Positions 2,025 through 55,588 of a DNA stretch of 55,588 bases are shown here, piece by piece. The translations under genes were made by a program, and so were the position numbers. The stretch is from Planctomycetota bacterium (GTDB taxonomy: Bacteria; Planctomycetota; Phycisphaerae; Sedimentisphaerales; Anaerobacaceae), in contig VRUK01000026.1 of the NCBI GenBank assembly GCA_019456195.1, forward strand, positions 1 to 55,588, given 5' to 3'. Under the pieces are notes generated by a model, which was given only the letters and a program-made list of their open reading frames with translations, made no database searches and was not told where the DNA came from. Position 1 is the stretch's first letter, and every line of letters starts with the position of its first letter.

Positions 2025-2087
2025 AGTATTATCTCCTTTCCTATAATAGTTTGAGCCTTTAAGGGGCTGGACTCTTCCGAGAGTGCT

Positions 2088-5669: not shown

Positions 5670-5722
5670 TAAACAGACTCCCGATAATTATCGTTACTCG
5701 TATTATAACAACCTTCTTAGAT

Positions 5723-5771
5723 TGGAGTAATACAAATTTAGACTAAGGAGAAGATATGAGACTTTTATTTT
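5723..5771 (-). repeat. degenerate duplicate of the 5' end of the HzsA-related gene
   Basis: Positions 5723-5771 match 5619-5666, the signal-peptide start of the downstream gene, at roughly 42 of 48 bases with a one-base insertion. Shared blocks include GAAGATATGAGACTTTT and AATACAAAT on the plus strand. This copy lacks the ATG and has an in-frame stop, so it is a non-coding remnant of a local duplication about 100 bp away. Confidence 0.75.
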
Positions 5772-5800
5772 GCAAGCTGCTGACTGTTGAAATCAAATCC

Positions 5801-6823: not shown

Positions 6824-7581
6824 TTTCTTTCCTTATACGTGATTATGGCATGTCCGGCAGCATCGATCAACAGAAATCAAAGAATATATGCAGTTAACAT
6901 TGGCAGATATTTCGTTACAGGATGCCTCAAAAATAATTGTGGCAATAGAGAATTTAGTATTTAATTTTAAATTCTTCGTAGGTGGCCGTGGCGTGTTGAC
7001 GAATCGAGATATTTTGCAAATCGGTGGCGTATGGATTATCATAACTATCAGCCGCACAGCAGCCTGGATTATATGGCCCCGGCGGCATTCGCAGCGCTGT
7101 GTCTTGAGCAAGGCTCCGGTTCCCTCCGCCTTACTCAAGATAATGAGAATTGTTGTTAACTATTCTCATGACGGCCGGACCAACATAAGGGGGCAGGTCA
7201 ATGTCATGTGGAAGAAGCACATCTTTGGCCTTTATGTAGGAGTTAAGAGTCCCCAACAAGCAGTTCAACCGTACAAGTGAAAGGCGCAGTTTTTCACTTG
7301 CCGGTTAGCTGAGGCGTTAGAAGTTTCGTAATTGAATCCTCATGAGATGAGCACGAGCTTTTGGAGGTATTCGAACGATAAAATGCATGTTAAGTCTCCA
7401 GGCTTTGACACGCAGGCACTTTACGGCTCTTCTTCTTATACCCATTGCTTACTACGTTACTCCCACACCCCTTCCACACTGCCAAACATATGCTTCAGTA
7501 TCGTGGTGGATTACATAGTCACCTTGTGAGTCCCTGCATTGTGAGCTTTATGATAAGGATAATTTACTTCGGTTCAAATAA
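6824..7581. other. 758-base gene-poor interval
   Basis: No ORF on either strand here shows a recognisable domain, a good ribosome site or protein-like composition; the two ~100-130-codon frames overlap each other antisense. The only structure I can support is the attC-like hairpin at 7251-7322. Confidence 0.6.
7251..7322 (+). other. integron attC-like recombination site (lone)
   Basis: The 72-base segment begins CCCCAAC and ends GCGTTAGAA, resembling R'' (RYYYAAC) and R' (GTTRRRY) with only the outermost base off in each. Inside, CAGTTCAACCG pairs with CGGTTAGCTG with an unpaired bulge, as in L''/L' boxes, and the centre is a perfect CAAGTGAAA/TTTCACTTG stem. This is the layout of an attC site. 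No integrase and no second site were seen, so it may be a relic cassette end or a coincidental hairpin. Confidence 0.5.
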
Positions 7582-39809: not shown

Positions 39810-40700
39810 TCATTCGCCTTTTTTCGGTAACGGCATTATGTCCGGCTCATCGAAACCTGCGGGTATCTTAAAGTCAAAAATCTTCTTATCTATTTTATTG
39901 TTGAATTTCGGGTTGAGAAATTTTATCTCGAAAACATCTTTCTGCTCTACCGGTTCAGTAGCCGGTTCGGTCGAAACCGTTACTATTTTAGTCGGCAAAC
40001 CCAATTTCTTATCAATCCAGAAATCAATAGACACGTAATCATCTTTATAAATCGAATTCGGCTTAACTTCCAAATGCACTTGAATAAAATCTTCGGGCCC
40101 TGACTTTTTTTGCTCAACTAACGTTATCTCAAACTGCTTTTTGATATCTTCAATTCTGGAAAATCCAACCATTGGAAAATTCTTGTTAATCAAATCAAAA
40201 ACATCAATCGGCTTATTCGGGTCTTGCACATCGGCTAATTGAATATACCTGATTCCCTCCATTTCGTAGTCGATCTGAACAGCCCACATCCCTTCGAACC
40301 GGTGGCCGGGATGAGAAAGATTGGCGCCGCCGAGAACGATATATTCCTCGACGTATTTTTCTTCTTCCTCATCATCTATTGTCCTCGTGTGAAAATTTAG
40401 TCTCAGCTTTGAGCTGTTGCCGATCTTGGTATAATAAAAAACACCTTTCTGCAGCCTTTCTGATTCGAGCAGCGGTTGAATGAATTTATACTCAATCTGG
40501 GCCTGAAAGGACATAAGCTCCGATGTCTTCTGATTCAACTGCTTCAGGACTTTATCGGCATCATTAGCTACTTCCTCTTTTGCTTGCCTTTTAGCTACAC
40601 AATTTGGACATGTACAAGCTTTTTTAACCTCAGAAGCCAAACAACCGCTCAGAGCCCACAACAAAACAATGGCTGATTTGATAATTATTTTTTTATTCAT
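39810..40700 (-). CDS. LolA-like-fold lipoprotein
   Basis: 296 residues. The signal has lipobox LSGC (residue ~20), followed by a Cys motif CTCPNC. From ~45 on, helix-then-sheet sequence typical of the LolA/LppX superfamily: VLKQLNQKTSELMSFQAQIE, GVFYYTKIGNSSKLRLNF, SIDFWIDKKLGLPTKIV and KKIFDFKIPAGFDEP. Such proteins bind lipids or lipoproteins in the periplasm; the cargo is unknown. It sits 7 bases upstream of the HPr-domain gene and is presumably co-transcribed with it. Confidence 0.75.
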   Translation of the reverse strand: MNKKIIIKSAIVLLWALSGCLASEVKKACTCPNCVAKRQAKEEVANDADKVLKQLNQKTSELMSFQAQIEYKFIQPLLESERLQKGVFYYTKIGNSSKLRLNFHTRTIDDEEEEKYVEEYIVLGGANLSHPGHRFEGMWAVQIDYEMEGIRYIQLADVQDPNKPIDVFDLINKNFPMVGFSRIEDIKKQFEITLVEQKKSGPEDFIQVHLEVKPNSIYKDDYVSIDFWIDKKLGLPTKIVTVSTEPATEPVEQKDVFEIKFLNPKFNNKIDKKIFDFKIPAGFDEPDIMPLPKKGE

Positions 40701-40727
40701 TATTCCGAGTTCCTTTTTCTCTAATCG

Positions 40728-41315
40728 CTATTTTTTACCATCGATTATTTCAAGTATCCGGCTGATATCCTCAACACAAAAATCCGCATGCTCTATAAAT
40801 TCACCGGCTTGATTGTGATTAGCCAGAAGCACTGCGACAGCACCTGCCGCCTTTGCACAGAGCAAATCAAAGAGGTAATCACCTACCAGCATAGTTTCCT
40901 TAGGCTCCACGCCGAATTGCTCACATATACGCAACACCCCGAAAGCATCGGGCTTAACCGGCCCGTCTTCTCGACCGATAACCATATCAAACTTCAGCTC
41001 GTGCTTTTGAGCGATAGCAAGGGCATTTTCACGCTTATTACGCGTCAAGACTCCGATATGAATACCCGCTGTACGAAGCGCAGAAAGCGTTTGTTTCGCA
41101 TTGGCGTTAAGTTTGGATTCTGTTACCGCTTTTTGCTCATGATAATGAAGTATTTTCTCGGCATCCTGACGCTGCTGAACGGTCATATTTTCCATCAACT
41201 CCAGAATAGGTCCGGAATCTCTGGCTAACCCTATTTCCTCCCGAATATCATCAAAATTGAAGAAAGGCTGAGTTATAGTGCCGTCCAAATCAAATATTAC
41301 AGCTTTAATCTGCAT
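40728..41315 (-). CDS. HAD-superfamily phosphatase (phosphoglycolate phosphatase-like)
   Basis: 195 residues. Motif I is VIFDLDGTITQP, motif II GVLTRNKRENA, motif III Lys in DGPVKPDAFGVL, and motif IV VGDYLFDLLCAKAAG. The helical cap between residues ~15 and 75 is of type C1. It dephosphorylates a small substrate such as phosphoglycolate, a sugar phosphate or a nucleotide. It lies 27 bases upstream of the LolA-like gene and 46 bases downstream of the LysR gene, all on the minus strand. Confidence 0.92.
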   Translation of the reverse strand: MQIKAVIFDLDGTITQPFFNFDDIREEIGLARDSGPILELMENMTVQQRQDAEKILHYHEQKAVTESKLNANAKQTLSALRTAGIHIGVLTRNKRENALAIAQKHELKFDMVIGREDGPVKPDAFGVLRICEQFGVEPKETMLVGDYLFDLLCAKAAGAVAVLLANHNQAGEFIEHADFCVEDISRILEIIDGKK

Positions 41316-41361
41316 TTATAATACTTTGTGGATGCGTCTATGCGACCACTCGTCCATATAT

Positions 41362-42249
41362 TTATGCTTCACGTTTTTTACGCAGCAGCTCAATAAAGTA
41401 TCGGCCAGCCTGGCCTATAATTTTACCTTTACGAAGAATTATTCCGGTAGTTCTAATAAATTTTTCATTCGAGAAAGGAATTGCCTTTATTGTTCCACTG
41501 CTCAGTTCTGGAAGGATTGCCGTTTGAGGCAATATACTTATTCCTGAATTTATTTCCACCGCCCTTTTGATGGTTTCGATGTTATCGAACTCCATCACCT
41601 GCCGGACAGCAACATTATATCGCTCCAGAATACTATCGATCCACGCCCGTGTGGGAACATTTTTCTCAAAAGCAATGAATTTTTCAAACTGCAGCCTGTG
41701 AATATCGACCTGCTGCTCATGTGAAAACGGATGTTTCGGGCTGCAGACCATAACCAGCGGCTCACCCTCAAAATCATACACTTCGAGTCTTTTATCTCTT
41801 TTAGGGACAGCTACAAGGCCGATATCGACATTACCGGATAAAACCAGCTCATAAATCCTGCTGGCACTAAAGTATTCAATATGGACGTTAACATCCGGAT
41901 AGCTGACCATGAATTTCTTAACATAGTCCGGCAGCGTATGCATCCCGATACTGAAAATCGCAGCTACGTTTACCCTGCTCGAAGAAGACTTACCCAAAGC
42001 GTTAAGTTCGGTCTTAAGCTGTTCATATCTATCAAGAATATCTTTAGACGCCTGGTAAAGCAACTGCCCCGCCTTAGTAAGTTCAATAGGTCTTTTCTTG
42101 CGATTTATCAACTGGCATTTATGAGTAAGCTCAAGTTGAGCAAGTTGCTGTGAAACCGCGGATTGACTTAAAAGGTGCTTCTCAGCGGTTCTTGAGAAAC
42201 TTCTCAAATCTGATAAATCACAAAACACCTTTAGTATATCTATATGCAT
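41362..42249 (-). CDS. LysR-family transcriptional regulator
   Basis: 295 residues. Winged HTH at residues 1-60: LKVFCDLSDLRSFSRTAEKH, then SQSAVSQQLAQLE. The effector-binding domain follows at ~90-290 (GNVDIGLVAVPKRDKRLEVY, GISILPQTAILPELSSGTI). It is divergent from gdhA across 186 bases holding a long interrupted inverted repeat. This suggests that it controls gdhA, analogous to GltC or CysB-type logic for nitrogen assimilation (inference). It may also autoregulate. Confidence 0.9.
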   Translation of the reverse strand: MHIDILKVFCDLSDLRSFSRTAEKHLLSQSAVSQQLAQLELTHKCQLINRKKRPIELTKAGQLLYQASKDILDRYEQLKTELNALGKSSSSRVNVAAIFSIGMHTLPDYVKKFMVSYPDVNVHIEYFSASRIYELVLSGNVDIGLVAVPKRDKRLEVYDFEGEPLVMVCSPKHPFSHEQQVDIHRLQFEKFIAFEKNVPTRAWIDSILERYNVAVRQVMEFDNIETIKRAVEINSGISILPQTAILPELSSGTIKAIPFSNEKFIRTTGIILRKGKIIGQAGRYFIELLRKKREA

Positions 42250-42322
42250 TATAAGCTACCCTAATAGAATGTATTAACATTAATGCCTTGTACTACACTC
42301 ATCAAGTGTGCTATTTTACCGG

Positions 42323-42351
42323 TTGACTTTTGCTTTTAGCAACACAATTAT
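42323..42351 (+). promoter_or_regulatory. candidate gdhA promoter
   Basis: TTGACT (42323-42328), 17-base spacer, AATTAT (42346-42351), ~85 bases before the gdhA start. The inverted repeat overlaps it. Confidence 0.4.
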
Positions 42352-42397
42352 GCGGTTTTTCTATTAGTTTAACTTATTTCAATAGTTGCAAAAGCAA
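42330..42397. promoter_or_regulatory. interrupted inverted repeat, candidate LysR operator
   Basis: TTGCTTTT-A-GCAAC (42330-42343) is mirrored by GTTGC-AAAAGCAA (42385-42397). It lies between the divergent LysR and gdhA genes and overlaps the candidate promoter. Confidence 0.5.
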
Positions 42398-42435
42398 TAA
42401 AATACAAATTAGGATTGTTAATGGAGATTACTTAA

Positions 42436-43782
<1,347 letters not shown>

Positions 43783-43808
43783 CAAAAACAGCTTAAAAGA
43801 TATTCCAA

Positions 43809-43838
43809 GGGCGTTTACTGATGTAAACGCCCTTTTTT
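43809..43838 (+). terminator. gdhA rho-independent terminator
   Basis: GGGCGTTTAC-TGAT-GTAAACGCCC perfect 10-base stem followed by TTTTTT, 26 bases after the gdhA stop. Confidence 0.95.
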
Positions 43839-43877
43839 ATTGCGTTATTTTCAAGATGCCGTTACAATTCGCTTCCG

Positions 43878-44618
43878 ATGGGAAAAGAAGTAAACATTGA
43901 TAAAGTTATTCGTCAGCACCTTGAGATGGAGCAGTTTTTTTCCGGCTTTTCTCTTAAGAGTACAGCCGGAACACCCGAACCACAACAACAGAAAGAAGAT
44001 GATATGACCGCAGCCCAAAAAGCCGCCGAGCTTGAAAAAATAGCCGCCGAAGTTAACAAATGCCGCGAATGCGACCTGGGCTCGACACGAACAAACGCAG
44101 TCCCCGGCGAGGGCAATCCGAACGCCCGAATTATGTTTGTCGGCGAAGGTCCCGGAGCCGACGAAGATGCACAAGGCCGGCCTTTTGTCGGAAGAGCGGG
44201 ACAGCTACTGGATAAGATAATCGCTGCCTGCGGCCTTAAACGAAGCGATGTCTATATAGGCAACATCCTGAAGTGCCGTCCGCCGGGCAACCGCGATCCT
44301 CGCGCCGATGAGATAATAAACTGCCTGCCCTATCTCCAAAGACAGATTGAGATAATAAGTCCCGAAATTATCGTAGCTCTGGGCGCCCACGCAGCCAGAA
44401 CACTTTTGAACACCACCAAACCGATAGGCCAGTTGCGAGGCCAATTCCTCGATTACTATACCGGAATCGACAAACCCCCTACTAAGCTTATGGCGACATA
44501 TCATCCCGCCTATCTGCTGCGAAATTACTCTCCGGATAATCGCAGAAAGGTCTGGGAAGATATGCAAAAGGTCCTCACCGAACTCGGCCTGCCAATACCG
44601 GAACGCCAAACAGGATAA
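43878..44618 (+). CDS. type-4 uracil-DNA glycosylase (Fe-S)
   Basis: 246 residues. A ~50-residue N-terminal extension precedes the core. Motif A is VGEGPGADEDAQGRPFVGRA, and motif B contains HPAYLLRN. The [4Fe-4S] cysteines are in CRECDLG, NILKCRPPGNRDP and IINCLPYLQ. It removes uracil from DNA. Type-4 UDGs are common in thermophiles and many environmental bacteria. It stands alone between gdhA and the selenoprotein region. A later in-frame ATG (MTAAQKAAEL) could be the true start. Confidence 0.92.
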   Translation: MGKEVNIDKVIRQHLEMEQFFSGFSLKSTAGTPEPQQQKEDDMTAAQKAAELEKIAAEVNKCRECDLGSTRTNAVPGEGNPNARIMFVGEGPGADEDAQGRPFVGRAGQLLDKIIAACGLKRSDVYIGNILKCRPPGNRDPRADEIINCLPYLQRQIEIISPEIIVALGAHAARTLLNTTKPIGQLRGQFLDYYTGIDKPPTKLMATYHPAYLLRNYSPDNRRKVWEDMQKVLTELGLPIPERQTG

Positions 44619-44679
44619 TTTCACTCAAGTTCGCCAGCAATTCAAATCACTAAAATATTGAAGAATTATGTGTGTAACA

Positions 44680-44707
44680 TTTGACTTTTTGGGCCGTCTT
44701 CTATAAT
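44680..44707 (+). promoter_or_regulatory. sigma-70-like promoter of the first selenoprotein gene
   Basis: TTTGAC (44680-44685), 16-base spacer, TATAAT (44702-44707), ~72 bases before ATG 44779. Confidence 0.55.
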
Positions 44708-44778
44708 AATAGATGTTTGCAGCATCTCAATGCGGTTGAATTAATCTGATTCGGGCTTTTTAGCGGAAGGAACTTGAT

Positions 44779-45945
44779 ATGAGAAAAAAAACGTTTTTCT
44801 TGAGATTCCTGAACGCCGGCACTCTTGTACCATTTTGCCTTTCATTGATGCTAATTGCATTCGGCTGTAAGGAAAAGACAGAAGAAGTCGTGTTTAATCT
44901 GGAGGAAATTTCCGACTACGATGTGAACTGGCCTGAGCGAACGCTGCCGAGAGCTCTAAAGTTTCCGGGTAAGGTACGCAAGGGCGAAATCAAGATTGGC
45001 GGAAACGAATACGACGTTTTTATAAGCCCTCATCCCAAGACAGATATTTGTTTTTTCCCAAAAAGTAGTCCCCAGTATTATCCCCGCTGGTGGGGAGCAA
45101 ATCTGCTAAACGCAACGCATGCTATTGACGGAAAACATTACTGCTTTGACATCACAACGAAGGGCGACAAACTAATCGTTCGACCGTACGAAGGTGAGTT
45201 TGGCACATTCGAGATCGGTGCTGGTGGACGTAATATTCAAGAGATAGCAATGCAGGGTTCGCTGCGCTCCGAAGATACGGCTGTATCTGTTGGAGGTGAA
45301 CTGGAGCTTGAAAGTGAACTGGAGCGTGGCTGGCCGAAACCAGCTAAGAGTTGCCGGGTGCCTGTTGGTGACTATTTGCCAACTATTGTAACGGTTACAT
45401 TCGGGCAGCTGAGCATTACTGTTTCAAATAATGTTCACGCTGACGGCCAACGTCGTCCAAACAACTACCCCCGCATCTATGGAATCAAAATTCGCAAGGA
45501 CAAATCCTATGTCTTTGACTTTTCCAACAAACCGAAGGTAATATTCGCATCGCCTGCAAAGAACCATCGCGTCAAATTGGGCGAGGAGCTAAGTGTTAAG
45601 GCTGTCCTGATAGACCCGGAACTGGATATTATGATTCGCGATCTTAAAGACACTACAAAAAAGCAGAAAAAAGAATACGTTACCCCGGACGGCGAAAAAC
45701 ATAACTACGAACTAAGTCTATCACTCGATCCAAAAGTAATCATTACGCGAGCAGATGGTGAAAAGGTCGCCGAGGGTGTCATGCCATTTGGGTGAGACGG
45801 CACCTGTGGGTTCTCGTGGCGAGTACCAAACAATCTTAAAATCAATGGCAGCGAAGAGAAGTTCAATGTCAAGGTGAAATACGATACCAAACAGCTTTAC
45901 GGTAAAGTAACCGCAACACGGCAGATTGTAATTTATAGAGATTGA
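44779..45945 (+). CDS. selenoprotein (FGU-D-x-T-C-x-x-SWR family), lipoprotein, Sec339
   Basis: Read through an in-frame TGA at 45793-45795 this is 388 residues; without readthrough it would stop at 338. The lipoprotein-type signal ends LIAFGC. The mature part is beta-rich, with a PVGDY motif near residue 193, and reaches ...GVMPFG-U-DGTC, then GFSWRVPNNLK. The 49 codons after TGA continue as good protein to a real stop at 45943. U339 and C343 form a U-x-x-x-C pair. The same motif, at the same distance from the PxGxY motif, is in the genes at 47242 and 48841. A hairpin at 45809-45827 fits a SECIS. GGAAGGA precedes the ATG. The redox substrate is unknown. Alternative: nonsense mutation, unlikely given the three parallel cases. 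Confidence 0.85.
45809..45827 (+). promoter_or_regulatory. bacterial SECIS-like hairpin 1
   Basis: Starts 14 bases after the TGA: G-GTTCTCG-TGG-CGAGTAC-C, one internal T-T mismatch, 3-base loop with G's. The loop lies 21 bases after the TGA, within the usual bacterial range. Confidence 0.75.
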
Positions 45946-46078
45946 AAATACAGTAATGTAAAAACATTTATTTTTTTGTTTTTTTTTTTGAAAATTACTG
46001 CAATTAATTCTTGCTTCAGGCGTCTATTTTTTAGATGAAACATTTTCCGTGTGATTCTTGATTTTTAGGAGATGTGTA

Positions 46079-47095
46079 ATGAAACGCACTTTCTTTTGTC
46101 TAATCATTCTATCACTTGCTGTGATTCCCGCAAAAGCGCGGCGCTTCGCTTCAGGCCCATTTGAGTTGGCAGTCTATCCGGCGAAAGCTTCTGAGTCTGC
46201 ACAGCAATACCAACTCCTTCCGAAAACTGACAAGCAGGCCGATGCGGTGCCATTGTACGAAAAAGCCATTCAGGCATTGCCGAGAGGCCGCAAACAGGAC
46301 AAGCAGGTACAGGAATGGTTAAAACTACCGCCTGAGCAACTGCCACAAAAGCAGGTTATAGAAATGATACAGAAATATATGGAGAGCCTGAAACTCGTTT
46401 CACAAGCGACAAGATGCGAGCAGTGCAATTGGCCTAAATGGAAGCCGGGAACAACACCCCCGGATACGAGTGAATATCGCAGTCTGGCTTTTTCGCTTGA
46501 GCTCTGGGCAAGAATGGAGATTGTTCACGGAGAGTATGATAGGGCTCTGCTCGTAATGCAGACAGGATTCGGGATGTCCAGACACCTTGGACAGGCACCT
46601 ACCTGTGTTCAGGCCATGGTTGGAACAGCGATTGGCGCGGTAATGTGCAAAGAAGTTGAACTGTTCATAAAGGGCAAAGACTCGCCAAATCTGTACTGGG
46701 CCCTTGCCAATCTGCCGAGGCCGTTCGCAGATGTGAAAAAGGCGATAGAAGCCGAGAGAGCAAATCTAAAAAATTATAACTTTCTTCTCCGAAGACAGTT
46801 TGAAAAACAGCTAAAGCCTGCTCATGATAGAATGCTGTTCATAGCAAAGAGGTTGGAGAACAACTTGAATGCGATGCAGTGTGTGGAGGCAATACGCAAT
46901 TATGCAGCCACACACGATGGACAGTTGCCGGAGAAGCTAAGTGACATAAGCGATCTCGAACTTCCGATAGACGTTATGAATGACAAAGCCTTCGGGTATC
47001 AACGTACTGCCAAAGGGGCCGTGTTACAGTCGGAGATGCCGGAGGGAGGAGATGAAGTTGATGTAGTTCGGTACCAGATTGTCTTGAAGAAGTAG
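46079..47095 (+). CDS. exported protein of unknown function in the selenoprotein cluster
   Basis: 338 residues from ATG 46079 (AGGAG 7 bases upstream; a TTG at 46058 is in frame but lacks a site). The signal peptide is LIILSLAVIPAKA. The mature protein is helical (ADAVPLYEKAIQALPRGRKQ, EYRSLAFSLELWARMEIVHG, FADVKKAIEAERANLKNYNF) and ends in a short beta segment (GYQRTAKGAVLQSEMPEGGD). It has a TRCEQCNW cysteine pair near residue 120 that could be redox-active. I recognise it only as a planctomycete-type family. It sits between two selenoprotein genes on the same strand, so it may serve the same process. No TGA is read through here. Confidence 0.72.
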   Translation: MKRTFFCLIILSLAVIPAKARRFASGPFELAVYPAKASESAQQYQLLPKTDKQADAVPLYEKAIQALPRGRKQDKQVQEWLKLPPEQLPQKQVIEMIQKYMESLKLVSQATRCEQCNWPKWKPGTTPPDTSEYRSLAFSLELWARMEIVHGEYDRALLVMQTGFGMSRHLGQAPTCVQAMVGTAIGAVMCKEVELFIKGKDSPNLYWALANLPRPFADVKKAIEAERANLKNYNFLLRRQFEKQLKPAHDRMLFIAKRLENNLNAMQCVEAIRNYAATHDGQLPEKLSDISDLELPIDVMNDKAFGYQRTAKGAVLQSEMPEGGDEVDVVRYQIVLKK

Positions 47096-47241
47096 TTCGG
47101 AACTGCTGAAGCTATTATAGAACAGGATGGCATTTGACACTTATTAACAAGGAAAAGGATTTTTTTTATTTTTTTTGTCACGCAAAAGACCACTGAGCGT
47201 CTATAATATTAAATAGCTAACAGCGGGACAGGTACGAAAAA

Positions 47242-48702
47242 ATGATATTAGCACAGACCTTAAAATTCAAATTAGTCAATATACTTATCGCCATTCCGCT
47301 TTTGTGGATAACAGCAGTATGTCTATCTCAGGCGCAGGAGACTAATAAGCAGGATCCGGCCATGGGCAAACTAAAGATCGAAGGAAAATCTATTGTGCGT
47401 CTGATTCTGCGACGAGAGGACAATAATGAGAGAGAGGAATTTCGCCGGCCGGACCAAATCATAACGCTGCCGACAGGTAAATACTGTTTGCAGGAGGTTC
47501 ATCTTGAAGGTGGATATATCTGTTATGCGTCGAGAGGTCCAAAGCGTCTTATAGCAAGTGTTACCTCGGATGAACCAGCGACTTTGAAGATAGGTGCGCC
47601 CTTGAAGCAAGCCGTCAAAGTAAACCGACAAGGGTGCCATTTAGTAATGAATTATGAATTACTCGGAGTGGGTGGGGAACAATATACCGGCGGAAATACT
47701 GGTGAACCACCGACATTTACCGTCTATAAAGGAGATAAAGAAATCGCCTCAGACAAGTTCGAGTTTGGCTGAGGCGGCACATGCTCGTACTCGTGGCGAG
47801 TACCTCCAAATATCTTCGGCAAATTCAGGATTGTCGCTTCACAGGACATCGGCATACTGGGCACAAAAGAAGGTGCGGCAGTCGTTTATAACTGGAAGTG
47901 GTATTACTCAGCGCCAGGAGTGCTTTTATGGCTGGCGTTGATTCTTGTGTTTGTGTTACCCAGGTCAAACCGTAATCCCCGGGCGCTGCTTATCATCGCC
48001 CCGCTCCTGGTCGTGAACCTGTTATACCTGCTGTTCAAGAAGGCCATAGGCATGCCTTCCTCAGCAGCACAACAGTTTGATATGCTGTTTCAATCTATAT
48101 CTATAAGTATCTCCGTAATGTGGTTGATAGCGCATAAGCTTGGAAATCGCAATCGCTTTGTTACATTCCTTCTGACTCTCGCCCTAATGGCAGTGCTTGG
48201 TCTGGTAGGTGCTATATCCTACTGTGGACTGACATTTTCGCAGCAGACTGGAGGGGAAGTGATAATACTGGCTATGTTGGCATTGGCAATGCTGCTTGGT
48301 TTCGTCCTAACTGGCCGACAATGCCGAAATCGCTATAGCGGCTTACGATTTGTGTTATATCTGGCCCTCTGGACAATAGCTGTCTGTCTTGCGAGTACGC
48401 TCGTGTTTTACCCAATTGTGTTTATTATTCAACAAGTCCCTGTTCCGATTTCTACAGTATTGCTTGTGGCCCTGATATCAGGCTTGGCATTCGGTACCTT
48501 TTTATATGTGATTAATCTTCCCTTTATGATTTTGGTGTTTTACAGTCCCTTTTTCCGCGAACGATTTTATGCATGTTTGCGTCTCAAATCGATGCCGACA
48601 ACTACACCGCAGCCAAATACCAGCCAACCTAATGAGCAGCAAAGCCCACACCCGGAAAGACCCGAAGACGGCGGCTCTGTCTCAGAAACGCTGATACCGT
48701 AA
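47242..48702 (+). CDS. membrane selenoprotein (FGU-G-x-T-C-x-x-SWR family), Sec177
   Basis: 486 residues when the TGA at 47770-47772 is read as Sec; the frame stays open across it to the stop at 48702. The signal peptide (IAIPLLWITAVCLSQAQE) precedes an extracytoplasmic beta domain with LPTGKYCL near residue 75 and DKFEFG-U-GGTC, then SYSWRVPPNIFGKF. After ~residue 220 come seven or eight membrane helices (GVLLWLALILVFVLP, ALLIIAPLLVVNLLYLLF, VIILAMLALAMLLGFVL and others) and a proline-rich tail. U177/C181 form the U-x-x-x-C pair. The architecture suggests a membrane-tethered thiol/selenol redox protein that may pass electrons across the membrane (inference). Standard annotation would call two separate ORFs. 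Confidence 0.87.
47787..47803 (+). promoter_or_regulatory. bacterial SECIS-like hairpin 2
   Basis: GTACTCG-TGG-CGAGTAC, perfect 7-base stem, 14 bases after the TGA. Same loop as hairpins 1 and 3, different stem. Confidence 0.82.
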
Positions 48703-48840
48703 ATACTTACATAAAAAATATTAATAAAAGCACAAAATAATTGTAATTTTTCCCGGAAATCAAAGTCTAATCTTATATCGCGAGTAAATAACGGGCTTTC
48801 AGTTTGTCCAAATATTAACCTTATTTGGAGGTTCCGAAAA

Positions 48841-50249
48841 ATGCGACCTAAAATCAATATTTGGCTGACCGTGGGAATCAGCCTGATTGTATTTACATCT
48901 CCGGCACAAGCACAGGACCAGCAATGGCTTCAATATCACTCATCGCACGAATCGTGGCAGCCTCTCGGGGATATAAATGCGTCGTATCCGGAAGTGGTGT
49001 CTGACAAGCCAGAGGGCGTTGAACTGCCCGATTTCAAATGCGAAGAACGTTTTTTTGCTCGCTGGCCTACGCCTATGGTTGCCGGCGGCGGTCTCTGGTT
49101 GGCTTTTGACCGCAAAAGCAAGGCTGGCCCGCACGACTTACTGTATATAGACCTGAATGGAAACGGCAGTCTGGCTGATGAGTCTGCTCTGGAGGCGTAC
49201 GAATTAGATGAACGCAATGCAAAGTTCGATCCGGTAAAGATACTTTTTGAAGGTGAAGACGGCCCGATTACCTACCACCTGAACGTCAAGTTTTATCGCT
49301 TACCCAATCGTACTTCCTTAGTTTTATGGCCGGCAGGATGGTACGAGGGAGCTATCAAAGTCGCAGGGGCAAACAAGTATTGCGTGCTTATCGACTATAA
49401 CTCAAACGGCACATTTAATGATAAATCGCTCAACGCCGCCGAGTGCGACCGGATACAGATCGGCAAAAAAGGTGACCAGGACGCTCGTTTTGTCGGCAAC
49501 TTCATCGAGATTGACTGTGCGCTGTACCGGCCCGAGATTGCCCGGGATGGCGCCTGTATAAAGCTCATCAAGGCCGAGGACATAAAATTAGGAAATATTC
49601 GACTGCCGCAGACTATTAAGGAATTTTCCGCGGGAGGCGAGAACGGATTATTTAAGCTCAAGCTTGAAAGCGGCACCGGCTCGCTGCCGGTCGGGAGATA
49701 TCGTATCAATCAGTGGGCCATCGAACACGAAGACGAAAAGGGCAAAAATGGAAGCTGCAAGGCATGTGTTCCTCTGATAAAGGTGATTTTGATATTACCC
49801 CAGGCAATGAGACCGAGCTTTCGATTGGTGAGCCAATAGTATCCACTCTGGAGGTAAATAAAAAGGATTCAGGATACTCATTTAATCAGAGCCTTGGAGG
49901 ACGGTTCGGCGAGCGCATCGAATTGACCCGCAATGGCAGCCAGCCGCCAGCCCCTAAACTGCATATCAAAAGCAAAGACGGCTCATACGACCGAACTTTT
50001 AGCTTCGAGTATGGCTGAGGTAATACCTGTGCGCTCTCGTGGCGAGAGCCTAAAAATGTAAAAGGACCATTTATCGCAACCGTGGACATCGGCGCTCCCT
50101 TCAAAGTACAAAGTAAGCCCTACACCATAGCAGCCTCGGCTATTACACCTAAACGAAATATCTGGCTGACGGTTGTTGTCCTAACCGTTGTGGTCGCCAT
50201 CGTGATTATTCAACTGTTACGTACAAAGAGAACTCAAGTAATCCACTAA
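48841..50249 (+). CDS. membrane-anchored selenoprotein (same family), Sec ~393, with one apparent frameshift
   Basis: About 469 residues once two interruptions are bridged. Strong ribosome site TTGGAGGT. Signal peptide ends AQAQ. Two DxNxNG calcium-type loops are present (YIDLNGNGSLADE, LIDYNSNGTFND). At the A5 run 49744-49748 the frame breaks; one extra A restores GKKWKLQGMCSSDKGDFDI and the paralogue-like domain (LPVGRY..., LSIGEPIV). The TGA at 50016-50018 then follows FSFEYG and continues GNTCALSWREPKNVKGPF to a C-terminal membrane helix (NIWLTVVVLTVVVAIVIIQL) and TAA at 50247. The frameshift may be an assembly error or a real mutation. U-x-x-x-C is conserved with its paralogues. Confidence 0.78.
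50033..50049 (+). promoter_or_regulatory. bacterial SECIS-like hairpin 3
   Basis: GCTCTCG-TGG-CGAGAGC, perfect 7-base stem, 14 bases after the TGA. Relative to hairpin 2 the stem differs at positions on both arms that still pair. Confidence 0.82.
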
Positions 50250-50392
50250 CTTAATCTTGTTAAGGAATCAGGATTGACTGGCGGTAGGAGCCGCGAAGGA
50301 AAATTACTATGCGTCGAAATTGGATAGTGGTTTTGTACACCCGGAGGGGTTTATCCTGCAAGAACTCAATGAAAAAATTAAAGAGGCCGCCA

Positions 50393-51880
50393 ATGCAAAA
50401 TAATAAGAAAACAATTGTAATCACAATTCTAATTTGGGCAGGTTTTACTTCACTCTGTCTGGCCGCAACCACCACTAGCAAAACAATTCCAAAGCATCCA
50501 ACTGCCTTTGAATTGCTGGACAGGTACGCAGAAAATCAGGACAAATTCAAATCTTTTATCGTAAGAACTGTGACAAGTATGACAGAAGAAGATATAACCA
50601 AAGATGGAATAGTTTCACAATCATCAGAATCTAAATGGGAGATTGAGTTACGTTATGAGGATGATGGCGGTAACTTCCGTGCCTACTTGTGCCCGAGACA
50701 TCTTCAGAGTGCATCAGATGAGTCTTTGGTTCCAGAAGATAGATACCACAGAAACCTGTGGAACGGCAAAATATATTTCGAGCACCACAAGAGACCGACT
50801 GTGGATGACAGTGGCAGTTACATCTCATCTGATAAACAATATATCAAAGATGCAATAGCCATAGGATATCCTTGACCGTGTTCGTTTCTCGGTTGGTTAT
50901 ATGGAGATGTCGAACCGTTTGATTCGATATTGAAGCAAGCGAACTCCATATCAGTTCGCAGCGAGCTTGAGCGGGTCGGCTCGGGAGAATGCTATGTCAT
51001 CGACGCAAATACAAAACATGGCACTTACACTATATGGCTCGACCCCGAGCATGGCTACGGCATAGCGAAGGCAGACATCCACAAAGGGCCAAAAGACCTT
51101 CGCTTTGGACGACCGCTGGAGTACTATATGTTTGCGCCATATGACATTTCAATTCGAAATGTTCGCTTCGAAAGCATAGAGGGTGTCTGGATTCCCATGG
51201 AAGCGGATTTTCTGGCTGACTTCAAGGGGGCCCACAAGGGATCCAGCAGAGTATCAGTGAGGAAGGTTCACCAGAGGGTCACAGAAATGCTTCTCAATCC
51301 TGACCATGCTGAGTTACAATCTTTCGTCCCGGATATTCAGAATGGCACGAGTCTCAGAATCTTCGGGTTACCTGGAATCAAGTACAAGTGGCGGGAAGGA
51401 ATGAAGTTCATAACGGACGAATGGGATGGCAGTATCAGATATGTGCCGAAGGATTGGTCGATACTTATCGGGGCGGGTAAACCGATGCCAAAGTTTGAAG
51501 GTGTCAATCTGGACCTGTCTGCTGAACAAATTAAAAACAGGGCAATTCTTCTTTGCTTCTTCGATATGGAGCAGCGGCCGTCACGGAATTGCATTATGCG
51601 ACTTGCAAAACAAGCGGAGCAACTCAAGCAAAAAGGCATAACCATCGTTGCTGTTCAGTCTTCACAGATTTCCGAAAGCAAACTCAATGAATGGATAAAA
51701 AAGTATAATATCCCCTTCACAGTGGGAGCGATAACAGCGGATATTGAAAAGGCACGTTTCACCTGGGGTATTCGTTCACTCCCTTGGCTGATTCTAACAG
51801 ACAAAGAACATACTGTCCGGGCTGAAGGTTTCAGCATGTCCGAACTCGATGAAAAAATAAGTGCAATCACTCAGCGTTAA
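50393..51880 (+). CDS. LolA-like/thioredoxin-like exported protein, probable selenoprotein (Sec161)
   Basis: 495 residues if the TGA at 50873-50875 is read through; ATG 50393 is preferred because AGAGG lies 6 bases before it and a signal peptide follows (IVITILIWAGFTSLCLAA). The N-terminal half resembles LolA-like sorting proteins (FELLDRYAENQDKFKSFIV). At IGYP-U-PCSFLGWLYG the frame continues without a break in protein quality. The C-terminal ~150 residues are an AhpC/TlpA-like thioredoxin fold (RAILLCFFDMEQRPSRNCIM, KKYNIPFTVGAITAD) that lacks the usual CxxC and keeps one Cys. U161-P-C163 would be a U-x-C pair. A weaker hairpin at 50880-50915 is consistent with SECIS. A nonsense mutation from GGA or CGA is the main alternative. 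Confidence 0.6.
50880..50915 (+). promoter_or_regulatory. possible SECIS-like hairpin 4
   Basis: GTTCG/CGAAC outer stem, small internal loop, TCTC/GAGA inner stem, 13-base G-rich loop beginning 16 bases after the TGA. Weaker than the other five. Confidence 0.45.
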
Positions 51881-51974
51881 TGCTTATTTGCAGAAATTGC
51901 ACGACAACTGCAATTTCATTGCGACACGTCTTACAGAAAGAGCAATTTTCTTCAACTTCACCACGCATTTTTTA

Positions 51975-53669
51975 TCAGTGACTATGCAGGTTCTTTAATA
52001 GTGCCGGATATTTTGAACCGTGCGGGGTATGGCAATAGCTGCAGCCATCTTTAGTCCGCGATAGAGCCGAGCCTAAGAATTCTAATTTGTCAAATCCGGT
52101 TCCCATGGATTTCGCAGGAAATGACAGGCCATCAGGCGGTTCACCATCATGACAGGTCAGGCAGAATTCCGTACGTGTACCTGTCCAGGGTTCGGCGCCC
52201 CCGGAATCCGGGTCAATCAGACTTACGACACCGTTGCGATGTTTGTTGTTGTCATGGCACATCAGGCAGTCTTTGTCCGTAATCTCGCCGGAAATGTGCT
52301 TCGAGGCCATATTAAACTCTCCATCGGAGCCCAGGATTTGTCTGCGGCCATATACACCTTCGCGAGGATGGCAATTGGAACACACCTCGTGCTTCTGACC
52401 AAAGTCATCGGTACCGACTTGGCCTACATGGCAGTAGTCACAGTTCTCATCCTGCTTGTGGTGATAATCCGAATCACCGTGACAATCAATACACCCCTCC
52501 TGATGAGGCAGCTCTAAATCGATTGCAAACTTGCCCGAGCTAACTTTACCTTTCCAAACCTCTCGTGTGGGAGCCGACTCGATTTGAGCCAGCGTATCGT
52601 CATTGACTTCGTTGTTGTACACTGCGCTGAACTGCCCGACTGCGAATGCCACCTGGTCGTCGGGAGCAACAATTGTACCTTCGACTTCGGCCTCAAAAGC
52701 TTTTCCGGGGGCAATCCTTTGGAGCGGATTACTGCGCCTCGAACGCATCCGACGGCCACTACCGGCTTTAATGCTCAAAGCCTGTCCGCCGCTATTAATA
52801 ATCTCAAGGTTTTTGACGGCGTCGGCCGCCTTGTAATAGAAGTCAATGGGTTTGTCAGTCGTGTTCTCAAATTTTAATTTGGCTGCGACTACGTCACCGA
52901 CAATCAATTTTTCCGGATCGATACTTAGCCCGCAGCGCAGACCGTTAACCGTCTGTCCCCATTGCGGCACTGGTGGCGGCGGCATCCGGCCACCGTTGGC
53001 GATAAGTTTTTTCAGCACTCTTTCAACAGGTGGAATTCTGAAATCAAACGGCCCCGGCCCGGCGTAAAAGGCAACCTTGCCGTCGATATCAGTAATGGTA
53101 ACGCGAACAGGCCAGGACTTATAATCGTCATTGACCTTGCCGTCCATACCGTCTATGACCATCGGTATGGTAAATTTGTACTTGGCAACACACTCGCTGG
53201 CGAGAATAGTCCGCTCATCAAGGTCTTTCGGTCTGCCAACAATGCCCGTTTTGTTGCCCTCTCTCAACATTTCAGGATGGGCTTCGCGGATATAAACAAT
53301 CAGGAACTCGATATCTTTATTGTACGACGCGTACAATCTTTCCATGTCTGCTGCACGGGATGTGAACGGGGGTCACGTATAGCTCGACATAATCATACAG
53401 ACCGGCTTTTTGCCCCGGAAGGAGGATAATTTCACCGTATCGGTTTCACTGATTACTCCCTGAGATTTTCCTGTTTCATCCGTCTCAATCACCAGCCTGG
53501 GCAACTCGAAATCGGGTGGGAACTCTCCGATATTAATCTTGGGATTATAGCCCCGAGGCATTTTCTTTTGTTGACCTTCTGAGATATTTGCTATCAGAGA
53601 TACCAACAGAAATACGATTGTCAACAAGAAGGGAATGTTTCGAAAAACTTTTCTGCAAACTTTTTTCAT
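51975..53669 (-). CDS. deiodinase-like selenoprotein fused to hexahaem cytochrome c, Sec99
   Basis: 564 residues when the TGA at 53373-53375 is read as Sec. AAGGAG precedes ATG 53669. The N-terminal membrane/signal segment is LLTIVFLLVSLIANISEGQ. Residues ~45-225 form a thioredoxin-like domain whose active site SSYT-U-PPFTSRAADM matches the iodothyronine deiodinase signature (S-C-T-U-P-P-F), followed by DIEFLIVYIREAHP, also a deiodinase-family segment. Residues ~245-390 form a beta-sandwich (VVAAKLKFENTTDKPIDFYY). The C-terminus has six CxxCH motifs at about 393, 410, 430, 468, 503 and 543. The haems imply export and electron delivery to the selenol; the substrate could be a peroxide, a disulfide or a halogenated compound. 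It lies 83 bases downstream of the NapH-like gene. Confidence 0.9.
53342..53358 (-). promoter_or_regulatory. bacterial SECIS-like hairpin 5
   Basis: CCGTG-CAGCAGA-CATGG on the minus strand, 5-base stem with one G-T pair, beginning 14 bases after the TGA, the same spacing as hairpins 1-3. Confidence 0.6.
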
Positions 53670-53752
53670 CGTTAACTCCTTAATCCAAACCTGTATATTC
53701 CTGCTCCATTTTGCCTGATTTCATTTGCTAAATCAATAATAATTATTGCGCT

Positions 53753-54619
53753 TTACCCCAGTTTCTCAATATCGAGAGGAGTGTTTGTTTTTGAATTTTC
53801 AAAGATACTTCCGAGAGTCAATGCGCCTGGTTTGCAGCCGATGCACTCAAGGCAGCGACCGCACCGAGAGTCATTCGGGCTTTTTTCCGGCTCTATACCG
53901 TACTCGCACATTTTATGGCACTGTTTACACTCGGTACACTGATAAGGATTAAATCTCAGGAAAAGCGCCGATACACGATTGAAAAGTGAAAATATCGCGC
54001 CAAGCGGACAAAGTATCCTGCACCACGGTCTTTTTATAAAGAAAATGGCTACTAAAAACAGGATAAGGATAGTAAGCTTCAATGCGCTCGGCCAGATAAT
54101 CTCCTTACCTCCAATCGCCTGGCCGACCATATTTGGTACCGCCGCTTCGAGCGCCCCGGCCGGACATACCCGGCAGACAAAAAGCCAATGCCCTTCTCCG
54201 AAAAAATAAGGAACTGCAAGCACTGTGACAATTAAAACCACATAACGCAAATTACCAGTCCATTTAGGCAGGTCGAACCTGGGGGTTGGTACTTTGGCGA
54301 CAAGGTCCTGCAAAAAACCAAAGGGACAAACCCAGCCGCATATAAGAGTTCCAAACAAAACTCCGACGGCGATTAATAACCCGACTGCTATAAAAGGAAA
54401 AATATGCAGTGCGCCGAACTGGGCGATGATTCCGATAGGACAGGCGAAAGTTGACAACGGGCACGCGTAACAATGAAAAACAGGTGAGCACACAGTGTGC
54501 ATACGCAGACCCAGCGGATCCAGCCAGAGAAGAAGGAATGCCGATTGCACCCAAATCCGCCAGCCGAGAAGTTTCGAAGCGAGTTTGCTTAATTTTGTTT
54601 TTTCGACCATGGTCACCAT
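53753..54619 (-). CDS. NapH/MauN-type membrane iron-sulfur protein
   Basis: 288 residues, about five membrane helices (LLWLDPLGL, IAVGLLIAVGVLFGTLICGW, YVVLIVTVLAVPYFF, LTILILFLVAIFFI). Cysteine motifs CGWVCPFGFLQD and CRILCPLGAIFSLFNR are those of NapH/NosR-type quinol-oxidising proteins. The C-terminal part has two [4Fe-4S] sites, CTECKQCHKMC and CGRCLECIGCKPG. It probably takes electrons from menaquinol and delivers them to periplasmic haems, here most likely the hexahaem selenoprotein encoded just downstream. The start is ATG 54619 or 54610; 54619 lies within the SECIS-like hairpin of the upstream small selenoprotein gene. Confidence 0.88.
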   Translation of the reverse strand: MVTMVEKTKLSKLASKLLGWRIWVQSAFLLLWLDPLGLRMHTVCSPVFHCYACPLSTFACPIGIIAQFGALHIFPFIAVGLLIAVGVLFGTLICGWVCPFGFLQDLVAKVPTPRFDLPKWTGNLRYVVLIVTVLAVPYFFGEGHWLFVCRVCPAGALEAAVPNMVGQAIGGKEIIWPSALKLTILILFLVAIFFIKRPWCRILCPLGAIFSLFNRVSALFLRFNPYQCTECKQCHKMCEYGIEPEKSPNDSRCGRCLECIGCKPGALTLGSIFENSKTNTPLDIEKLG

Positions 54620-54623
54620 GGTC
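54605..54623 (-). promoter_or_regulatory. bacterial SECIS-like hairpin 6, overlapping the next gene's start
   Basis: GACCATGG-TGA-CCATGGTC, perfect 8-base stem, beginning 15 bases after the TGA at 54639-54641. It contains both candidate ATGs of the NapH-like gene, so Sec decoding and NapH initiation may affect each other. Confidence 0.7.
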
Positions 54624-54629
54624 CCCTGT

Positions 54630-54887
54630 TTAAGTGCCTCACGTCTCGCATTCTTCGGGTGCCTCGCCGGTGTATGTTTGCTTTATCTTTCCCGACTCAT
54701 CTCGCGTTACGCCGCCAACTGAAGCTTCTTTGATGAGAGCCGGTTCCGATTTGGCAACCGCCGGAGAACCGTCCTGGTTTTGGGGTAAAACGTTCGTCGA
54801 ATGAAAAACCGCACCGTATGTGATTAAAACCGCCCCAAGCAGAATCAGCAGGAAAAAACCGATGATTTTTTTATTTTTTGTCAGCAT
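54630..54887 (-). CDS. small membrane-anchored selenoprotein with C-terminal C-E-T-U-G-T, Sec83
   Basis: 85 residues with the TGA at 54639-54641 read as Sec, followed by GGC ACT and a TAA at 54630-54632. The N-terminal helix IIGFFLLILLGAVLITYGAV anchors it. The outside part has SVGGVTRDESGKIKQTYTGE, then APEECET-U-GT. C80-x-x-U83 is a standard C-x-x-U redox motif; only two codons follow, as in C-terminal selenol relays. The hairpin after it is the strongest of the set. Without Sec the motif would lose its redox partner. It lies between selC and the NapH-like gene, with a promoter at 54928-54955. Inferred role: electron or thiol relay for this system. Confidence 0.78.
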
Positions 54888-54927
54888 TAAAACGACTTCT
54901 ACTATTCAAATACTCTATACTATATCT

Positions 54928-54955
54928 ATTATACTTTTATATCGGACAAGCACAA
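54928..54955 (-). promoter_or_regulatory. promoter of the small selenoprotein/NapH/deiodinase-like operon
   Basis: Minus strand: TTGTGC (54955-54950), 16-base spacer, TATAAT (54933-54928), ~40 bases before ATG 54887. Confidence 0.55.
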
Positions 54956-54990
54956 GCAAATAGTCTTGCTTTATCCGTCCCGGAAATAAA

Positions 54991-55085
54991 TGGCGGAGGC
55001 GAATGGGAATCGAACCCACCCGGGACCTTATCAGCCCCACACTGGCTTTGAAGACCAGGGGCACCACCAGGCACCAGTCACCTCC
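54991..55085 (-). tRNA. selC: tRNA-Sec (TCA anticodon)
   Basis: 95 bases including encoded GCCA end. The 8-base acceptor GGAGGTGA pairs with TCGCCTCC (one G-T). The 6-base D stem is GGTGCC/GGTGCC with a TGGT loop. The anticodon arm is CTGGT-CTTCAAA-GCCAG, with TCA read as the selenocysteine anticodon. There is a long variable arm (GTGGGGCTGATAAGGTCCC). The T arm is TGGGT-TCGATTC-CCAT. The arrangement matches E. coli selC closely, so UGA is read as Sec in this organism. Confidence 0.97.
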
Positions 55086-55113
55086 ACATAGTTTTTTTGT
55101 TTTATCAGATACC

Positions 55114-55142
55114 ATAGTAATAAATCCGCTTCGTCCTGTCAA
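55114..55142 (-). promoter_or_regulatory. selC promoter
   Basis: Minus strand TTGACA (55142-55137), 17-base spacer, TACTAT (55119-55114); predicted start ~22 bases before the tRNA. The -35 box sits ~17 bases from the edge of the dispersed repeat. Confidence 0.75.
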
Positions 55143-55158
55143 TGAGTAAGCATCCCTT

Positions 55159-55540
55159 TGAAATTGGCTTTGATTGGGTTTGAATTGGGTTTGTTTTTGG
55201 CTTTATTGGGTTTGAATTGGGTTTGTTTTGGCTTTGTTTTTTCACTCCGCCAGCGAGTTAAAATCTCGTATTTACTTGTCATATCTATAGTTATGTTCAT
55301 TTTGTCATTTCTGAAATTGGCTTTGTTTTGCATAAAAAGGGTGTATTTGTCGAACATTCTCTACAGTTGTAGAGGGAAAATGAGTGAAAAGTGATCTAAA
55401 GTGACTAAAGTTGGGTGTTTCATATCTCTTATCTCATTCCGTCCACTGAAAGCCAGATAAAATTTCATATTGTGGGCTTAGGCCCCCTGTTGCGTGTCAA
55501 GTTAGCAGCTCTCGAGGGTAAACTAAGGGAGTAAAAAAAC
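55159..55540 (-). repeat. dispersed ~380-base repeat, copy B (inverted relative to copy A)
   Basis: Same blocks as copy A (26740-27119), read on the minus strand: TTTTTACTCCCTTAGTTTACC, then AACAGGGGGCCTAAGCCCAC, GATATGAAACACC, CTCTACAACTGTAGAG, TTTTTATGCAAAACAAA, TTTCAGAAATGACAAAATG and the CAAACCCAATTC array. A 72-codon frame can be drawn through it but lacks a ribosome site. It lies immediately upstream of selC. The rest of the window, to 55588, holds only intergenic sequence. Confidence 0.88.
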
Positions 55541-55588
55541 CCATTCGACTACGCTCAGGGCAGGCTCTGCTAAAATAAAGCAGCCCTC

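What the first reader, a model, noticed from the sequence alone, without database searches (positions are those of the whole stretch)
44779..55085. A selenocysteine island: tRNA-Sec plus six in-frame-TGA genes in 10 kb
A textbook selC with its own promoter lies next to six genes whose reading frames are each broken by exactly one TGA and continue in frame as convincing protein. The break is never TAA or TAG. Each TGA is followed by a hairpin at SECIS distance and the Sec is near a Cys. TGA is an ordinary stop in other genes here, so this is not a global recoding. Clustering this many different selenoproteins with selC is unusual.
Basis: partly seen in the sequence, partly recalled or inferred. 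Interest (0 to 1): 0.97.

Follow-up and report, generated by a model that had tools for sequence, protein, structure and literature searches.

The report
Selenium gene island, new selenoprotein family
This bacterial DNA carries the tRNA gene for the rare amino acid selenocysteine beside five genes whose internal UGA codon is predicted to be read as selenocysteine; three belong to a family, found in genome bins from several bacterial phyla, in which we found no cysteine version and which is likely new to science.

Summary
The selC island is real, with corrections. tRNA-Sec is confirmed (76 bits), and selA, selB and a split selD lie elsewhere in the same genome. Five of the six proposed genes hold up.

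Three of them (TGA at 45793, 47770, 50016), plus a copy beside selA, form one family, named here SWR: [YF]-G-U-x-x-T-C-x-x-S-W-R-x-P. In 397 genomes of the class, 63 match it. In the fetched loci 81 of 85 distinct copies have TGA at the Sec site and none has a Cys codon. The final stops of these genes are mixed. A hairpin 20-21 nt after the TGA covaries, even changing the protein (LSWRE to LRWPE). No Pfam or NCBIfam model and no family of a 119-family catalogue fits.

The fourth is a small membrane protein ending C-x-T-U-(1-3 residues), TGA in 17 of 17 copies. The fifth is a deiodinase-like/multiheme protein, TGA in 3 of 3.

The sixth (50309-51880) is rejected: homologues mostly carry Gly there and no SECIS hairpin follows. 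The 50016 gene is also broken by a frame change.

selC or selA lies near SWR copies in most genomes where both were listed. The function is likely periplasmic selenol redox chemistry, which is inferred.

The parts
54991..55085 (-). selC, tRNA-Sec (anticodon TCA)
   Evidence: ARAGORN; Rfam RF01852, 76.1 bits, E 1.8e-14
55114..55142 (-). promoter-like TTGACA-17-TACTAT upstream of selC
   Evidence: consensus scan, 10 of 12 positions; function untested
44779..45945 (+). SWR-family selenoprotein gene, type D (338 aa + Sec + 49 aa); Sec codon TGA 45793-45795; motif MPFG-U-DGTCGFSWRVP
45810..45826 (+). predicted SECIS hairpin of the 45793 site (one internal mismatch in this copy)
   Evidence: family covariation; single fold weak
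47242..48702 (+). SWR-family selenoprotein gene, type B (176 aa + Sec + 309 aa; six hydrophobic segments after the Sec); TGA 47770-47772; FEFG-U-GGTCSYSWRVP
   Evidence: hydrophobicity
47787..47803 (+). predicted SECIS hairpin of the 47770 site
48841..49839 (+). N-terminal part of SWR type C gene, in another frame than its Sec part
   Evidence: aligned by same-genus copy L022
49713..50249 (+). Sec-bearing part of SWR type C gene; TGA 50016-50018; FEYG-U-GNTCALSWREP
50033..50049 (+). predicted SECIS hairpin of the 50016 site
   Evidence: -9.4 kcal/mol; covariation
50309..51880 (+). thioredoxin-like (AhpC-TSA) gene with in-frame TGA at 50873; NOT supported as selenoprotein
   Evidence: mostly Gly at the TGA in homologues; no SECIS hairpin; closest family homologue has no stop
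51975..53669 (-). deiodinase-like domain (PF00837) plus six-CxxCH multiheme region; Sec codon 53375-53373 (SYT-U-PPF)
   Evidence: TGA at the same place in L057 and L054, the two relatives found in fetched loci
53319..53337 (-). conserved hairpin after the deiodinase-like TGA, loop 43 nt away (beyond the usual 16-37)
   Evidence: same place in 3 of 3 copies, one compensatory pair
53753..54619 (-). NapH-like membrane Fe-S protein (Fer4_5)
   Evidence: PF12801 55.7 bits; TIGR02163 58.1 bits, below its 213 cut-off
54630..54887 (-). small membrane-anchored selenoprotein ending C-E-T-U-G-T; Sec codon 54641-54639
   Evidence: TGA in 17 of 17 copies, this one included; 119 of 120 listed homologues end at CxT
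54605..54623 (-). predicted SECIS hairpin of the small gene; contains the start codon of the NapH-like gene
   Evidence: -12.7 kcal/mol; a like hairpin recurs in most relatives

Best explanation
The window holds selC and five genes in which one in-frame UGA is predicted to be read as selenocysteine; three of them belong to the SWR family, predicted to be membrane-anchored proteins with two Ig-like domains, in which we found no cysteine form. Decoding is predicted to work in the ordinary bacterial way: SelD makes selenophosphate, SelA makes Sec-tRNA, and SelB brings it to UGA when the hairpin just downstream (apical loop at 20-21 nt) follows. In SWR genes that hairpin lies inside the sequence coding for (Y/L/H)-(S/T)-W-R-(V/E), so the RNA constrains the protein. 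Inferred: the Sec and the Cys four residues on sit in one loop of the second Ig domain and likely form a selenenylsulfide redox couple outside the cytoplasmic membrane. The NapH-like Fe-S protein and the small membrane protein with a C-terminal CxTU end, often encoded as a unit beside selC, would likely supply the electrons. Why SWR copies multiply in tandem arrays beside selC or selA is not explained. The confidence given is for the decoding and the family; the redox relay alone I put near 0.4.
For: Machinery: selC, selA 541 bits, selB 360 bits, selD in two pieces at contig ends. Terminal stops of the 186 distinct frames are mixed: 80 TGA, 58 TAA, 44 TAG, 4 open. Downstream DNA is coding: differences fall 0.28/0.24/0.48 on codon positions 1/2/3 after the TGA and 0.28/0.25/0.47 before it; 43 copies have exactly 41 residues after Sec. 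Hairpin: in 78 profile-found copies 97.6% of cells in six pairs are standard; 500 shuffles average 84.2%, max 87.2%; slid partners 20-62%. Linkage, from the 150 listed copies: selC within 10 kb in 26 of 45 genomes, selA within 5 kb in 29 of 47. selA in 52 of 63 SWR genomes against 100 of 334 others (not corrected for kinship). U and C lost together: Cys at +4 in 74 of 78 Sec copies, 1 of 5 non-Sec copies (p 2e-4; counts). Model: one membrane helix plus beta-sandwich domains, pLDDT 95.9.
Against: No selenium has been measured in any of these proteins. Eleven of 63 SWR genomes lack a selA match; after looking at tRNA-Sec and selB, eight show no sign of the machinery. One of these, G345, is a single 5.8-Mb contig (estimated 87% complete) with a TGA copy and its hairpin apparently intact. 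Single-sequence hairpin energies in the window are mostly unremarkable. In copies with TCA or ACA codons the closing G-C pair is absent (43 of 182 are A-C), so the loop is larger there. In the one-contig genome G366 selC is 0.55 Mb from the nearest listed SWR copy. The small protein's relatives were found by a pattern that requires a stop after CxT, so that search alone could not have shown a Cys form. The redox-relay role rests only on gene neighbours, motif and predicted fold.
Confidence: 0.86

Rival explanations
1. The TGAs are ordinary stops; the proteins end at [YF]G, and the conserved DNA downstream is a structured 3' element or a second reading frame.
For: 117 of 120 listed SWR homologues and 119 of 120 listed small-protein homologues are annotated as ending at the TGA. 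G345 keeps the gene without visible sel machinery.
Against: The site is TGA in 132 of 132 scanned matches while true final stops are mixed. Downstream codons show coding periodicity equal to upstream. The downstream segment often has a fixed length and ends in beta strands that complete the second domain in the model.
Confidence: 0.05
2. Sec is inserted in the SWR genes, but the proteins are not redox enzymes: the U-xxx-C loop binds a metal or metalloid, or scavenges selenium or electrophiles.
For: The predicted fold is Ig-like, not thioredoxin-like. Many paralogues per genome fit a binding or surface role. No substrate is known.
Against: Neighbours are electron-transfer genes (NapH-like in 27 of 135 loci, 14 of which overlap another locus) and thioredoxin-like proteins (33 loci in the clustering); U and C are lost together.
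Confidence: 0.35
3. The whole set, including 50309-51880, is a six-gene selenoprotein island.
For: In-frame TGA with open continuation in all six. One loosely aligned homologue of 50309-51880 (P0076) has Cys at the site.
Against: Homologues of 50309-51880 mostly have Gly at the TGA (55 of 120, 26 of the first 30) and Gly where this copy has the nearby Cys (50 of 120); no SECIS hairpin; the closest homologue in the family scan is uninterrupted. A nonsense change or sequencing error fits better.
Confidence: 0.04

Closest known systems
Bacterial selenoprotein operons (SAO, Tso, grdAB, prdBC) as reviewed in PMC13188914
   Same: Several selenoprotein genes clustered, likely serving one pathway
   Different: None of these is described in section 9 as built round selC with paralogues of one family; Table 1's motifs include no [YF]GUxxTCxxSWRxP and no C-terminal CxTU protein beside a NapH-like gene (section 9; parts 1-2 of 3 of section 7)
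DUF1573 selenoprotein (OS_HP2, UGC motif)
   Same: Catalogued as a selenoprotein with Sec near a Cys (PMC13188914 table; PMC2398784 passage); DUF1573 is Ig-like as I recall; 2 of 30 SWR members match its NCBIfam model weakly (best E 0.08)
   Different: U-G-C against U-x-x-x-C; the table row in PMC2398784 ends in 354, which I take as Cys homologues (heading not seen); no significant profile match
Deiodinase-like selenoprotein (PF00837)
   Same: The 51975-53669 gene matches PF00837 at 65 bits (cut-off 27) and NF038285 at 120 bits (below its cut-off 250)
   Different: Motif UPPF instead of UxxC; fused to six CxxCH motifs
Thioredoxin reductase-type C-terminal Sec (GCUG end, recalled)
   Same: Sec one to three residues from the C terminus, next to a Cys
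   Different: CxTU on an 85-residue membrane protein without flavin domain; no Pfam match and no NCBIfam match near a cut-off

Membership tests
Bacterial selenoprotein gene (SWR genes) | In-frame TGA followed by conserved in-frame protein | tested here: met
Bacterial selenoprotein gene (SWR genes) | tRNA-Sec, SelA, SelB, SelD in the same genome | tested here: met
   own genome; selA not found in 11 of 63 SWR genomes
Bacterial selenoprotein gene (SWR genes) | SECIS hairpin with apical loop 16-37 nt after UGA, G early in the loop | tested here: met
   loop UGG at 21 nt; pairing conserved with compensatory changes; single-copy energies vary, two of three window copies miss the -7.5 kcal/mol rule in the strict scan
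Bacterial selenoprotein gene (SWR genes) | Cys-containing homologues | tested here: not met
   0 Cys codons in 85 and in 132 copies, sets overlapping; a usual criterion of prediction programs, not of selenoproteins as such
Bacterial selenoprotein gene (SWR genes) | Selenium measured in the protein | not testable with these tools
   -
Known prokaryotic selenoprotein families (NCBIfam/Pfam) | Profile match of SWR over the curated cut-off | tested here: not met
   no selenoprotein model over its cut-off; type C copies match Laminin_G_3 outside the Sec domain
DUF1573/OS_HP2 | U-G-C motif and profile match | tested here: inconclusive
   motif differs (U-x-x-x-C); 2 of 30 weak matches
Deiodinase-like selenoprotein (gene 51975-53669) | PF00837 domain | tested here: met
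   65.1 bits, cut-off 27
Deiodinase-like selenoprotein (gene 51975-53669) | UxxC motif of the catalogued family | tested here: not met
   UPPF in the window and both relatives
NapH/MauN ferredoxin-type protein (53753-54619) | TIGR02163 over cut-off | tested here: not met
   58.1 of 213 bits; called NapH-like only
Selenoprotein (gene 50309-51880) | Sec or Cys at the TGA in homologues | tested here: not met
   Gly in 55 of 120 aligned homologues, Cys in 1 loosely aligned one

The most novel reading that the evidence does not exclude
A previously undescribed selenol electron-transfer module of the bacterial cell envelope: SWR Ig-fold selenoproteins, a CxTU membrane shuttle and a NapH-like Fe-S protein travel as one cassette with selC, selA and selB across several phyla, are not replaced by cysteine, and may be the main reason these lineages keep the selenocysteine code. 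SWR would then be among the largest Sec-only protein families, missed because prediction programs rely on Cys homologues.
Probability: 0.45. Interest if true: 0.93.

Novelty: new variant of a known kind. Interest (0 to 1): 0.86.

Why it matters
Many selenoproteins are thioredoxin-fold variants with cysteine relatives, and programs that find them use those relatives; [quoted passage not shown] A large, multi-phylum family with no Cys form found, an Ig-like predicted fold and tandem paralogues shows what that blind spot can hide. It makes the question of what keeps the costly Sec trait in a genome testable, and it gives a natural set of 182 distinct aligned SECIS-type hairpins in which RNA structure visibly dictates protein sequence. 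Many database proteins of these two families are probably annotated short.

Tried and rejected
Rejected: gene 50309-51880 as a selenoprotein. Rejected: global TGA recoding, since TGA ends 80 of the 186 SWR frames. Pfam and NCBIfam gave no selenoprotein or other family over its cut-off in the Sec domain of SWR, and the PDB sequence search nothing below E 0.06. Fold search: 1 Foldseek match at E <= 0.001, with low TM-scores; VIA Z at best 8.2 (first domain, 4ecn) and 7.6 (second domain, E. coli alpha-2-macroglobulin), which may mean only a common arrangement; absence of a closer fold is not evidence. A scan of viral contigs with the SWR pattern gave 0. Rfam lists no SECIS match in 40000-55588. 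Strict single-sequence SECIS scanning did not separate true sites well. The L159 match (TAG) was dropped as an unrelated chance hit of the small-protein pattern. Two of 184 downstream segments were dropped as out of register before the pair count. Distances to selA are from one end of the listed range, and copies beyond the 150 listed rows were not included.

Literature: nine searches showed no SWR-like family in their listings; open-access library only. Seen: PMC13188914 (abstract, sections 5 and 9, parts 1-2 of 3 of section 7, passages); passages of PMC12013277, PMC2398784 and PMC4807772; all others search listing only. Haft and Tolstoy 2025 (PMC12013261) is not held and was not read; no supplements were read.
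Full report
What is there. The tRNA-Sec gene at 54991-55085(-) is certain. Six frames nearby run through one TGA each. The same genome holds selA and selB side by side on contig C106 and selD in two pieces at the ends of C106 and C196. A pattern made from the window found the same TGA-plus-hairpin motif at four places in the whole genome: three in this window and one beside selA on C106. A fifth, more distant copy lies on C141.

One family, not three unrelated genes. The proteins around the TGAs at 45793, 47770 and 50016 and the C106 copy align, with invariant G-U-x-x-T-C-x-x-S-W-R-x-P (T and S vary in the wider family). I call it SWR. A profile of these four searched in 397 genomes of the class matched 63 genomes; of the 150 matches listed, 143 contain one TGA and no other stop, 1 contains two TGA, 3 contain a TGA and another stop, and 3 contain none. 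Among 85 distinct copies in fetched loci (the best matches and chosen clusters), 81 have TGA at the Sec column; the others are ACC, TTG, GGA and CGT, and none is Cys. The profile was built with Cys in that column, so Cys copies would not have been missed for that reason. The two sets overlap; together they hold 184 distinct downstream segments. The listed titles name Planctomycetota, Verrucomicrobia, Lentisphaerae, Hydrogenedentota, Sumerlaeota/BRC1, Omnitrophota, Riflebacteria and one Actinomycetes bin; these are metagenome bins, so single phylum labels need care.

Why it is selenocysteine. First, the codon: the Sec site is TGA in 132 of 132 while final stops are 80 TGA, 58 TAA, 44 TAG and 4 open. 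Second, the downstream DNA is protein: 163 pairs of copies differ most at third codon positions, in nearly the same proportions as upstream, and 43 copies have exactly 41 residues after the Sec. Third, the RNA: the segment coding Y-S-W-R-V folds on itself, with a UGG loop starting 21 nt after the TGA. In 78 copies found by profile (not by hairpin), 97.6% of cells in six pairs are standard, against 84.2% on average and 87.2% at most in 500 shuffles and 20-62% when partners are slid. Changes on both sides include TCG/CGA, ACA/CGT and CGG/CCG; the last turns the protein from SWR to RWP. The shuffle control does not remove kinship. Fourth, location: selC lies within 10 kb of a listed SWR copy in 26 of 45 genomes with both listed, and selA within 5 kb in 29 of 47.

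Against it. Eleven of 63 SWR genomes lack a selA match. G360 and G390 have a strong tRNA-Sec, and G360, G175 and G390 have partial SelB, leaving eight. G354's copy carries another stop in frame. G345, a single contig, keeps a TGA copy with its hairpin and no machinery found; this is unexplained. In the one-contig genome G366 selC is far from any listed SWR copy.

The other genes. The small protein at 54630-54887(-) ends C-E-T-U-G-T. In 17 of 17 copies (this one included) found in held loci with a pattern open to any stop, CxT is followed by TGA, then one to three residues and a stop; 119 of 120 listed homologues of 195 are annotated as ending at CxT. A hairpin recurs 12-15 nt after the TGA in most copies; in the window it contains the start codon of the next gene, a NapH-like Fe-S protein. 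selC, this gene and the NapH-like gene form a same-strand unit in L054, L057, L059, L064, L100, L119, L125, L128 and the window. In L075 (Riflebacteria), L084 (BRC1) and L090 (Sumerlaeota) the NapH-like gene sits between selB and an SWR gene. The deiodinase-like gene has TGA in all three copies seen in held loci, with a conserved hairpin, although its loop is 43 nt away. The gene at 50309-51880 is not a selenoprotein by this evidence: Gly is by far the commonest residue at the TGA (55 of 120 listed homologues, 26 of the first 30) and where this copy has the nearby Cys (50 of 120); one loosely aligned homologue has Cys.

Structure and function. AlphaFold2 on the C106 copy with 29 relatives gives one N-terminal membrane helix followed by beta strands throughout (pLDDT 95.9, pTM 0.87), which I read as two Ig-like domains from the matches to each half. 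Sec 176 and Cys 180 lie in the stretch between strands 166-171 and 182-185. The structure matches are those of common Ig-like domains. Cys at +4 is present in 74 of 78 Sec copies and 1 of 5 copies without Sec, which suggests the two act together, on small numbers. The window's type B copy adds six hydrophobic segments after the Sec domain; two scanned type C copies add a Laminin_G_3 domain. I infer an envelope selenol redox protein fed through the CxTU and NapH-like proteins. Sec decoding is strongly supported, the pairing of Sec with Cys is suggested, and the electron route is a guess from neighbours.

Novelty. No SWR member scanned reaches a Pfam or NCBIfam cut-off in its Sec domain, and the 119-family table in PMC13188914 lists no such motif. 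The subscription literature and Haft and Tolstoy 2025 could not be read.

Noticed in passing
50309-51880 (TGA 50873): Thioredoxin-like gene in which two nearby positions that are mostly Gly in homologues read TGA and Cys here; probably a nonsense change or sequencing error private to this genome.
   Followed up: yes
48841-50249: SWR type C gene split over two frames in this assembly; a copy without the frame change exists in the same genus (L022).
   Followed up: partly
L019 (G000:C106) 1-7000: Between the selD piece and selA: two 2-hydroxyglutaryl-CoA dehydratase D-component-like proteins (HGD-D), an activator-like protein, a methyltransferase and a weakly porin-like protein; similar genes recur in other SWR loci.
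   Followed up: partly
53319-53337: A perfect hairpin after the deiodinase-like TGA is conserved in all three copies seen although it lies farther away than the usual SECIS range.
   Followed up: partly
51975-53669: Deiodinase-like domain fused to a region with six CxxCH heme motifs.
   Followed up: partly
G271, G304, G393, G411: Twenty-four or more thioredoxin-like (AhpC-TSA) matches per genome, a large paralogue expansion in this family of bacteria.
   Followed up: no
G345:C1:1573038-1573406: TGA copy with its hairpin kept in a single-contig genome where no selA, full selB or strong tRNA-Sec was found.
   Followed up: partly
55139-55357: Lysine/asparagine/proline-rich low-complexity frame made of short repeats ('KPKQTQFKPNKAKNKPNSNPIKANF'); looks like a repeat, not a gene.
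   Followed up: no
46058-47095: Intact gene of unknown family between two SWR genes; no Pfam or NCBIfam match near a cut-off.
   Followed up: no
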